This document shows positions 13,778-51,586 of a DNA stretch of 64,000 bases, piece by piece. A model generated the notes under the pieces. That model was not told where the DNA came from. It saw nothing but the letters and a program-made list of their open reading frames with translations, and searched no databases. The stretch is from Clostridium sp. MB40-C1 (GTDB lineage Bacteria; Bacillota; Clostridia; Clostridiales; Clostridiaceae), in the NCBI RefSeq assembly GCF_030913655.1, contig NZ_CP133189.1, forward strand, positions 248,001 through 312,000, written 5' to 3'. Numbering within the stretch: the stretch's first letter is position 1; every line of letters starts with the position of its first letter. The translations under genes were made by a program, and so were the position numbers.

Positions 13778-14893
13778 ATGGCAGATCAAAGACTTAATAA
13801 ATTGGCAAAGCTATTAGTTAATTATTCAGCTGAGGTTAAAGAGGGAGATTTTGTATTAGTGCAATGTGATGAAATTGCTGAGCCATGGATGGTTGAAGTT
13901 GTAAAAGAGGCTATAAAAGCAGGTGCTCATGTAGAAACTATTTTAGATTCTCATGAAACAGAGCAAATTAAATTGAGGTATAGTAGTGAAGAACAACTTC
14001 AAGAAGAAAACTTTATGCAAAAAATAATGTTAGAAAAGGCAGATGTATGGCTTACTGCATGGGGTACAAAAAATACTAAGGCAAACTCTAATATTGATTC
14101 AAAAAAGATTCAATTGAAAACTAAAGGAGCAGCAAGTTGGAGAAAGATATACTCTGATAGGACTGGGGATGGAAGTTTAAGATGGTGTGGAACTCAGTTT
14201 CCAACTTATGCAGATGCGCAAGAAGCTAGTATGAGTCTTTCAGAATATGAAGATTTCGTATATGGTGCTGGACTTTTGAATTGCGAAGATCCAGTAGTAG
14301 AATGGAAGAAAGTAAGTGCTTACCATGAAAAATGGATAAAATATCTAGATAAGAAAAAAGAATTACATATAATATCAAAAGGAACAGATATAAAAGTTAA
14401 AATTGAGGGTAGAAAGTGGATAAATTGTGATGGAAAAGTTAACTTCCCTGATGGAGAAATTTTCACATCACCAGTAGAAGATGGAATTAACGGATACATT
14501 ACTTTTAGCTTCCCAGGAATATATGCAGGAAAAGAAATCGAAGGAATTAAATTAGAAGTTAAAGATGGGAAAGTAGTAAAAGCTACTGCTGAAAAAGGAG
14601 AAGACTTATTAAAAACTTTACTTGAGACGGATGAAGGAGCATCAAGATTTGGAGAAGTAGCTATAGGAACTAACTATGGCATTAAAAACTTTACAAGGAA
14701 TATGCTCTTTGATGAGAAAATAGGTGGAACTATACACATGGCTATAGGAGATTCTATGCCTGAAGCTGGTGGGAAAAATAAATCGGTCATTCATTGGGAT
14801 ATGCTTTGTGATATGAGAAATGGTGGAGAAATATATGCTGATGGAGAACTATTTTATAAAGATGGCAAACTTATAGAAGAAATATTAAAATAA
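13778..14893 (+). CDS. M29-family aminopeptidase (AmpS/PepS/AmpT type)
   Basis: A 371-residue metallo-aminopeptidase. The N-terminal alpha/beta domain starts ADQRLNKLAKLLVNYSAEVKEGDFVLVQ. The C-terminal domain carries the M29 metal and catalytic residues within FGEVAIGTNYGI, IGGTIHMAIGDSMPEAGG and SVIHWDMLCDMRNGG. It releases N-terminal residues from peptides in the cytoplasm. It is somewhat shorter than the 400-415 residues of many members, with no obvious gap. Start ATG after GGAGGAAG. Its TAA overlaps the first bases of the large structured element at 14892-15545. Confidence 0.9.
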   Translation: MADQRLNKLAKLLVNYSAEVKEGDFVLVQCDEIAEPWMVEVVKEAIKAGAHVETILDSHETEQIKLRYSSEEQLQEENFMQKIMLEKADVWLTAWGTKNTKANSNIDSKKIQLKTKGAASWRKIYSDRTGDGSLRWCGTQFPTYADAQEASMSLSEYEDFVYGAGLLNCEDPVVEWKKVSAYHEKWIKYLDKKKELHIISKGTDIKVKIEGRKWINCDGKVNFPDGEIFTSPVEDGINGYITFSFPGIYAGKEIEGIKLEVKDGKVVKATAEKGEDLLKTLLETDEGASRFGEVAIGTNYGIKNFTRNMLFDEKIGGTIHMAIGDSMPEAGGKNKSVIHWDMLCDMRNGGEIYADGELFYKDGKLIEEILK

Positions 14894-15545
14894 TGTTGTG
14901 ACGTAATGAATAACGGCAGAAGAATAGGTTTTTCTAAATACATGTAGTTTATCCATTAAACCTTCAGCACGCAAAGAAGTACTAAAGGCGTAGCCTTCTA
15001 AAAATCCTACCCTCACTATGCGTCATTCATGACGCAGTTCGGCTGCAGGAGTCCATTTCTGCAATTACGGATTTTTAGAATTCTACACCTTAAGTACTTC
15101 TAATTGCTACTTCAAAGTTTAATCGGCTAACTACATATATAAGAAAACCTTATTCCTATGCCTTGATTTTTCATGAATAATACAGTTTAAAATGTATATT
15201 TGGGAGAAGAGGACTACTAAAAGATGATTTTCCTCCTAACGTCAGAAAATCTTTAAACTAAACTGTTTTTTCAGACTTTTAGCGGTAGTATGTATGTTTA
15301 TTCAGTATTTTATAGCAACTATCTTTTAATCTTAAGTTAAGAGATGACTCCCATAAGCTATCGCTTTTAAGAGCTTACCAGCTCTTTTGTTTAAGTCAAA
15401 AACAAAGCTCATAATGAAAAATTAAATTTTCATTATGAGCTTATTCTTTTACTTAATTCAAAGATTTTATGACATTAGGAAGAAAATCAACCTCTCCTAG
15501 TATTTAGTACCTGATTCTTAGAAAAATGTTGCGTCACAACATTTT
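14892..15545 (-). mobile_element. Large hairpin-rich dispersed element, copy A (654 bp, inverted relative to copy B)
   Basis: Read on the minus strand, this region matches 50716-51515 along most of its length. The ends are imperfect inverted repeats (AATGTTGTGACG and its complement). In order on the minus strand come a terminal palindrome ATGTTGTGACGCAACAT, a GATTTTCTTCC..GTCATAAAATC hairpin, a CATAATGAAAA hairpin (15410-15442), a GAGCTGGTAAGCTC hairpin, a variable middle, a second GATTTTCTGAC hairpin (15226-15251) and a 248-nt cruciform (14915-15162). No reading frame or transposase is present. It fills the whole space between the ampS stop and the metS stop. Whether it is a mobile element, an RNA gene or both is not known. 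Confidence 0.7.
14915..15162 (-). ncRNA. Structured core of copy A with two covarying hairpins
   Basis: On the minus strand the outer arms (GGCATAGGAATAAGGTTTTCT and, at the other end, AAAAACCTATTCTTCTGCC) pair and enclose a long imperfect helix of about 85 bp. At the apex are two hairpins: 15045-15062 (minus strand GCAGAA-ATGGAC-TCCTGC) and 15019-15036 (TGCGTC-ATGAAT-GACGCA), joined by AGCCGAACT. Compared with copy B the stems are changed pairwise while the joining sequence is constant. A structured RNA is the simplest reading; transcription is not shown. Confidence 0.5.
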
Positions 15546-50538: not shown

Positions 50539-50712
50539 ATGGTTAAGAAAGATAATAGTACAATTGTATATTTTAGCGGTTTTTTAGTTACAGTATTAGG
50601 ATTTCAAATAGGCATAGCAATACCCATACTAAGTAGAATACAGACTCTTATACTTATGGTTATAGGGTGTGGCATTATGACTATAGGAATTATAATGCCA
50701 GATGAAGAATAG
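50539..50712 (+). CDS. Small membrane protein (57 aa)
   Basis: ATG 50539 after AAAGGGGG; TAG 50710. Two hydrophobic helices (IVYFSGFLVTVLGFQIGIAIP and about IQTLILMVIGCGIMTIGIIM) and a short acidic end PDEE. Family not recognised. The large structured element copy B starts 4 nt after its stop codon, and its first palindrome could act as the gene's terminator. Confidence 0.65.
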   Translation: MVKKDNSTIVYFSGFLVTVLGFQIGIAIPILSRIQTLILMVIGCGIMTIGIIMPDEE

Positions 50713-50715
50713 AAA

Positions 50716-51515
50716 AATGTTGCGTCGCAACATTATTATAGAGATTAATGAACAGAGAATAGTGAATAGTAAAGGAAGATTTTCTTCCTAGTGTCAGAAA
50801 ATCTTTAAACTAAGTAAAAATAAGAGCATAATGAAAAATCAATTTTTCATTATGCTCTTTGTCGTTAGGCTAAGTAAAAGAGCTGATAAGCTCTTAAAAG
50901 CGGTAGCTGGGGGAAATATTACTAAATTTTAGATTAAGTATTTTTATTTATAGTATATTCTGAACATAATAAGATAAATGTTAAGCCGGAGGCTGTAATA
51001 AGTTTTAATATTAAAGTAATATTATTGATACTGAGAATATAGATAGATTTGTGTACTTTAAAATACTATTTATATCATTACAGTATTATATATTATAAAC
51101 CTTTTAATTTTAAATACTGATGGTTTGTTTTAAAGTAACTTTCTATTTAGTTTTAAGATTTTCTGACATAAGGAAGAAAATCATCCTTTAGTCTTCCTCT
51201 TCTCCCCAGTATACATATTAAACTATATTACTTATAAAGAAACTAAGGCATAGGAATAAGGTTTTCTTATATATGTAGTTAGCCAATTAAACTTTGAAGT
51301 AGCAACTAGAAATACTTAAGGTGGAGGTTTCTAAAAATGCGTAATTGTCGGAACGGACTCCGACAGCCGAGCTGGGGAATGGACTCCCCATAGTGAGGGT
51401 AGCATTTTTAGAAAAATACACCTTTAGTATTTCTTTGCGTGATGAAGGTTTAATGGATAACTACATATATTTAGAAAACCTATTCCTATGCCGTTACTCA
51501 TTCCGTCGTAATATT
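50716..51515 (+). mobile_element. Large hairpin-rich dispersed element, copy B (800 bp)
   Basis: Homologous over most of its length to the reverse complement of 14892-15545. It begins with palindrome AATGTTGCGTCGCAACATT and ends with the related ATTCCGTCGTAATATT. Internal hairpins: 50778-50803 (GATTTTCTTCC...GTCAGAAAATC), about 50822-50860 (GAGCATAATGAAAA / TTTTCATTATGCTC), about 50878-50895 (AGAGCTGATAAGCTCT), and 51157-51182 (GATTTTCTGAC...GAAAATC). The middle (about 50925-51150) is longer than in copy A and unrelated by eye. The cruciform core is 51247-51492. No gene or transposase is present; one 65-codon frame inside is a by-product of the cruciform. Confidence 0.7.
51247..51492 (+). ncRNA. 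Structured core of copy B with two covarying hairpins
   Basis: GGCATAGGAATAAGGTTTTC at the left pairs with AAAACCTATTCCTATGCC at the right, enclosing a long imperfect helix. At the apex are hairpin 1 (51347-51364, GTCGGA-ACGGAC-TCCGAC) and hairpin 2 (51373-51390, TGGGGA-ATGGAC-TCCCCA), joined by AGCCGAGC. Both loops share A-Y-G-G-A-C. The stems differ from copy A by compensatory changes. It is a candidate structured RNA; expression is not shown. Confidence 0.5.
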
Positions 51516-51586
51516 CTTCTAATATGTATTATATATAATTAATGTGGTAATATAATAACTATAAAAAATACTTAGGAGTGATTTAT

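What the first reader, a model, noticed from the sequence alone, without database searches (positions are those of the whole stretch)
51340..51396. Two apical hairpins that covary between the two copies of a large structured element
Seen directly: copy B has GTCGGA-ACGGAC-TCCGAC, linker AGCCGAGC, then TGGGGA-ATGGAC-TCCCCA. Copy A (minus strand of 15019-15062) has GCAGAA-ATGGAC-TCCTGC, linker AGCCGAAC, then TGCGTC-ATGAAT-GACGCA. Between just two copies, hairpin 1 shows two full compensatory pair swaps plus one single change, and hairpin 2 shows three full swaps. The linker and the flanking sequence (for example ATAGTGAGGGTAG) are almost unchanged. This is the pattern expected of selection on base pairing in an RNA, or of a mechanism that rewrites both arms together. 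Inference: an undescribed structured RNA, or variable identity tags on a dispersed element.
Basis: partly seen in the sequence, partly recalled or inferred. Interest (0 to 1): 0.87.

Follow-up and report, generated by a model that had tools for sequence, protein, structure and literature searches.

The report
CsrA-type twin-hairpin RNA on repeats
The two covarying hairpins are real and belong to a known but untested bacterial RNA family, TwoAYGGAY, whose loops look like docking sites for the regulator CsrA; here that RNA sits at the tip of a long palindrome scattered in about 33 copies through one clostridial genome.

Summary
The stems change freely, but both loops keep A-N-G-G-A. The sequence is not undescribed. 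A covariance model built from these copies reaches other genera, and Rfam RF01731 (TwoAYGGAY) hits the same loci: one copy in this genome passes the gathering score, and window copy A scores E = 0.009. Rfam puts RF01731 in the same clan (CL00106) as E. coli CsrB. A 2014 paper (PMC4333381) already predicted that TwoAYGGAY binds CsrA; I found no experimental test. The genome has three csrA genes. What I did not find described is the carrier: an almost fully palindromic dispersed repeat of about 300 bp, with about 33 apex-bearing copies here. Between two sister species the same sites hold different subfamilies, opposite orientations, a bare terminator-like hairpin, or a centre-deleted remnant. 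Rare mutations in individual copies show no G-U preference, so most copies look like decaying mobile-repeat insertions. The pairing constraint acts on the lineages that spread. CsrA binding, expression and the means of transposition are inferred.

The parts
51347..51364 (+). Apical hairpin 1 of copy B, hexaloop ACGGAC (ANGGAN)
   Evidence: Sequence; fold; covariation
51373..51390 (+). Apical hairpin 2 of copy B, hexaloop ATGGAC (ANGGAN)
   Evidence: Sequence; covariation
51329..51413 (+). TwoAYGGAY-type core of copy B: basal helix TTCTAAAAATGC/GCATTTTTAGAA, conserved GTAATT, linker AGCCGAGC and ATAGTGAGGGTAG, two hairpins
   Evidence: Model R1: 111.8 bits on this strand; minus-strand matches of similar copies score only about 19 bits
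51247..51492 (+). Near-perfect palindromic arms around the core
   Evidence: RNA fold -119.9 kcal/mol, z -14.2; DNA fold z -14.7
51218..51521 (+). Whole palindromic repeat (about 304 bp) from TTAAACTATATTACTTA to the right end TCGTAATATTCTTCTA; left edge approximate
   Evidence: Flank comparison of all copies
14996..15080 (-). Core of copy A (subfamily II stems), with one broken pair in hairpin 1 and a damaged hairpin 2 loop ATGAAT
   Evidence: R1 105.2 bits; RF01731 at 14964-15114, 30.7 bits, E 0.0091
14886..15190 (-). Whole palindromic repeat, copy A (edges approximate)
   Evidence: the orthologous site in G007 has only a short hairpin
50710..50740 (.). 31-bp palindrome at the left end of the composite repeat; terminator-like; also occurs alone elsewhere
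   Evidence: terminator scan
50770..51200 (+). Accessory multi-hairpin module to the left; absent from some copies and found without the core elsewhere
   Evidence: Fold; copies in G007, G003, G005; module alone in L153

Best explanation
The two hairpins are the paired GGA-loop hairpins of a TwoAYGGAY (RF01731) RNA. The stems only have to present an A-N-G-G-A loop, so their sequence drifts as long as both arms change together. A CsrA dimer most likely clamps the two loops, about 26 nt apart, on one RNA, so that the transcript titrates CsrA or holds it locally, as CsrB/RsmZ RNAs do. The RNA is carried at the tip of a palindromic, non-coding dispersed repeat. Shown here: the pairing constraint, the loop constraint, homology to RF01731, the shared Rfam clan with CsrB, copy number, and turnover at fixed sites. 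Inferred: transcription of this strand, CsrA binding, titration, and spread by a transposase acting in trans or by conversion between copies.
For: RF01731 hits the same loci, one above the gathering score, and copy A at E 0.009. Model R1 built from these copies finds the element in four other genera; RF01731 finds it in 21 of 226 genomes of the order. Loops across genera are AGGAC, AAGGAC, ATGGAC, ACGGAC, AGGAA, AAGGAA, AAGGAT on unrelated stems; E. coli CsrB repeats read CAGGAUG, CAGGACG, CAGGAAG. CsrB and RF01731 share clan CL00106. Loop positions 2 and 6 (the N positions) depart in 16 row-positions, the four motif positions in 6. Three csrA genes are present; the two whose proteins I read keep the residue aligned with E. 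coli Arg44. The same CsrA prediction was published (PMC4333381). In genome G097 one copy lies between flgL and fliW-csrA.
Against: No expression or binding data. Rare mutations in stems show no G-U excess over A-C (31 against 36, p 0.63), so single copies do not look like selected RNAs. Among copies between genes in the same direction, the GGA strand is more often antisense (28 against 12). Co-occurrence with csrA is not informative: 20 of 21 carriers against 187 of 226 genomes overall, and the exception is a 64%-complete genome. No strong promoter was found.
Confidence: 0.68

Rival explanations
1. A DNA-level palindromic mobile repeat (MITE-like). The hairpins matter as single-stranded DNA, for example for recognition during transposition, and no RNA function exists.
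For: Dispersed high copy number, no ORF conserved between subfamilies, palindromic arms with degenerate terminal repeats, sites at gene 3' ends, same-site turnover, empty or remnant sites in a sister species. Rare changes are equally G-U and A-C.
Against: Only one strand carries GGA loops, and their conservation across genera with loop length 5 or 6 and any stem fits CsrA sites closely. Several genomes carry only one detected copy. No transposase with these ends was identified.
Confidence: 0.22
2. Both arms are rewritten together by template switching or gene conversion inside the palindrome, so the covariation reflects a copying mechanism and not selection on pairing.
For: Several fixed swaps are double transversions (G-C to C-G, G-C to T-A) that do not pass through G-U. 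Subfamilies are exchanged between copies at fixed sites.
Against: It does not explain why the loops stay A-N-G-G-A while the stems turn over completely between genera, nor why stems of different genera share no sequence yet stay paired.
Confidence: 0.12
3. The twin loops bind something else, such as another GGA-binding protein or a complementary RNA.
For: No binding data exist (none found); loop conservation alone does not name the partner.
Against: The sequence rule, hexaloop geometry, paired arrangement and clan assignment all point to CsrA.
Confidence: 0.1

Closest known systems
TwoAYGGAY RNA, Rfam RF01731 (Weinberg et al. 2010, PMC2864571)
   Same: Two apical hairpins with AYGGAY-type loops in a closing helix; Clostridiales; detected at the same loci
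   Different: Window copies score below the gathering threshold; the repeat extends about 70 bp beyond the Rfam model on each side as a palindrome and is high-copy, which I did not find described
CsrB/RsmB (RF00018) and the RsmX/Y/Z RNAs
   Same: GGA-loop hairpins; CsrB is in the same Rfam clan CL00106; proposed to bind CsrA
   Different: CsrB is a single-copy gene with many GGA sites; here there are two sites per element in dozens of dispersed elements, with no proof of CsrA binding
Bacterial MITEs and palindromic repeats (for example RUP, Correia; from general knowledge)
   Same: Short, non-coding, inverted ends, TA at the ends, gene 3' ends, no own transposase found
   Different: Carries a conserved one-strand RNA motif shared across genera; target duplication not proven

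Membership tests
TwoAYGGAY RF01731 | Score at or above the gathering threshold (43 bits) | tested here: inconclusive
   One homologous copy in this genome 43.9 bits; copy A 30.7 bits, E 0.009; copy B no hit up to E 10. Copies A and B are about 85% identical.
TwoAYGGAY RF01731 | Two hairpins with AYGGAY/ANGGAN terminal loops inside a basal helix | tested here: met
   Copy A's second loop is damaged (ATGAAT).
TwoAYGGAY RF01731 | Homology through intermediates | tested here: met
   R1 built from these copies recovers RF01731 loci in other genera, for example G021:C315 and G010:C4.
CsrA-sequestering RNA (CsrB/RsmZ type) | ANGGA in hairpin loops | tested here: met
CsrA-sequestering RNA (CsrB/RsmZ type) | Binds CsrA and antagonises it | not testable with these tools
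   Needs binding and genetic assays
CsrA-sequestering RNA (CsrB/RsmZ type) | csrA in the same genome | tested here: met
   Three in G000; 20 of 21 carriers in the order
MITE | Terminal inverted repeats, no ORF, many copies | tested here: met
   the left terminal repeat is degenerate
MITE | Target-site duplication and clean empty sites | tested here: inconclusive
   Orthologous sites hold a short hairpin, a lone 31-bp palindrome, another module or a deleted remnant; no clean TA duplication shown
MITE | Related autonomous transposon | not tested
   No transposase seen at the ends examined, but no systematic search was made

The most novel reading that the evidence does not exclude
A transposable palindrome spreads a CsrA-binding RNA through clostridial genomes, so that up to about 33 mobile copies together (some 66 GGA hairpins) set the free CsrA level: a CsrB-like sponge that evolved as, or is used by, a selfish repeat in bacteria thought to control CsrA by FliW.
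Probability: 0.25. Interest if true: 0.82.

Novelty: new member of a known kind. Interest (0 to 1): 0.5.

Why it matters
It ties an unvalidated Rfam family to a concrete, multi-copy genomic element and makes the 2014 CsrA prediction directly testable outside the Gammaproteobacteria. If the RNA is expressed and binds CsrA, regulation of CsrA in clostridia would include a mobile RNA component. The Rfam model also misses most of the copies here, and its boundaries should be extended to the palindromic arms.

Tried and rejected
Rfam at gathering threshold on the window: nothing. Phage, plasmid and viral-contig searches: nothing; an exact-pattern scan of genome contigs: nothing. Ribozyme or riboswitch: no convincing Rfam match apart from RF01731. 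A short reading frame across the apex of copy B: rejected, because subfamily changes follow base pairing, not codons, and subfamily II lacks its ATG. Per-copy identity tags: rejected, because stems are shared by whole subfamilies. csrA co-occurrence as evidence: uninformative, because csrA is in 83% of the genomes. G-U against A-C asymmetry as proof of an RNA strand: no bias.

Full report
Observation. Copy B's element folds into one long imperfect stem from 51247 to 51492 with the two hairpins at its tip (RNA z -14.2, DNA z -14.7). The single change in copy A's first hairpin is a private broken pair; copy A's second loop (ATGAAT) is also damaged.

More copies. The element occurs throughout the 3.89-Mb genome. 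I fetched 33 copies with the apex plus a number of partial ones. A sister genome (G007) has 18 apex-bearing copies and two truncated ones. Six other genomes of the genus gave no DNA-level match, although a single RF01731 locus over the gathering score was later found in one of them, G003. Stem haplotypes include GTCGGA/TCCGAC, GTCAGA/TCTGAC, GCAGGA/TCCTGC, GCCGGA/TCCGGC for hairpin 1 and TGGGGA/TCCCCA, TGCGTC/GACGCA, TGGGAC/GTCCCA, TGGGAT/GTCCCA (G-U closed), GGGGC/GCCCC for hairpin 2.

Covariation. On 28 distinct copies the drawn structure pairs in 96.7% of cells (shuffled 85.9%; slid by 1-3 columns 39-50%) with a covariation score of 0.320 (shuffled 0.131, 0 of 500). On a tree built without the hairpin columns, both partners change on the same branch 22 times against 5.3 expected. 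Recombination between copies may inflate the number of events. The loops behave differently from the stems. Both keep A-N-G-G-A-N, with 16 departures at the two N positions and 6 at the four motif positions.

Identity. A covariance model of the 85-nt core (R1) finds the element in four further genera. There the stems share nothing with the window, yet the loops are again A(N)GGAN and the flanking words GTAA and GGTAG mostly remain. That led to Rfam RF01731, TwoAYGGAY. In this genome RF01731 gives 13 matches at E up to 1, one at 43.9 bits over the gathering score of 43; window copy A has E 0.009; copy B is missed. In the order, 21 of 226 genomes carry it, several in many copies: 15 matches in G010 at E up to 1, 11 in G108, 9 in G088 and 7 in G164 (its filters lose weak matches). 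Their cores too sit at the tips of long palindromes.

What the hairpins do. RF01731 is in Rfam clan CL00106, the clan of E. coli CsrB. Its loops match the CsrA site ANGGA and the CsrB repeats. PMC4333381 proposed in 2014 that TwoAYGGAY binds CsrA; of the papers held that name it, none I read reports a test. All carriers but one 64%-complete genome have csrA, but so do 83% of genomes overall. The most likely mechanism is a CsrA dimer clamping the two loops; this is inference.

What carries it. The repeat sits mainly at gene 3' ends: 34 of about 80 copies lie between convergent genes and only 3 between divergent ones. Many ends coincide with stop codons, because the terminal sequence TAGAAnAATGTTG supplies TAG or TAA. 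Comparing G000 and G007, the same site often holds another subfamily or the opposite orientation (L001/L039, L007/L043, L065/L031, L014/L041, L024/L034), or only a short hairpin (copy A's site), a lone 31-bp terminator-like palindrome, an accessory module, or a repeat with its centre deleted. These loci turn over repeatedly. Whether by fresh insertion or by conversion between copies is open.

Selection on which level. Rare non-pairing states over all stems are 31 G-U and 36 A-C, so single copies are not visibly maintained as RNA. The pairing and loop constraint is seen between subfamilies and genera. It therefore acts on lineages that spread, or on a few functional copies among many decaying ones.

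Limits. Organism names are hidden for the genomes used; a proteolytic Clostridium botulinum/sporogenes relative is my guess from genome size, not tested. No expression data were available. The ends of the repeat are set by comparison and are approximate on the left.

Noticed in passing
50710-50740; also L047:2337, L053:2043, L055:2068, L062:2081, L066:2020: A 31-bp palindrome TAGAAAAATGTTGCGACGCAACATTTTTCTA, terminator-like in both directions, occurs alone at gene 3' ends and as the end of larger repeats; its first bases often form the stop codon of the neighbouring gene.
   Followed up: partly
50741-51200; L153, L087, L093: An accessory repeat with heptamer runs (GAATAGTGAACAGAG or CCAGTAACCAGT types) and nested hairpins, symmetric and complete in sister species, often joined to the TwoAYGGAY palindrome here.
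   Followed up: partly
L096:1501-1586 (genome G097): A TwoAYGGAY copy lies between flgL and the fliW-csrA pair, antisense to them.
   Followed up: no
L001/L039, L007/L043, L065/L031, L023/L033: The same intergenic site carries the repeat in opposite orientation in two sister species.
   Followed up: partly
G000:C1:752159, 2561030, 2564073: Three csrA genes in this genome, where most relatives have one.
   Followed up: no
L034 core: Hairpin 1 reads GCCCCACTGGACTCCGAC, as if part of another stem had been copied in; a possible conversion tract.
   Followed up: no
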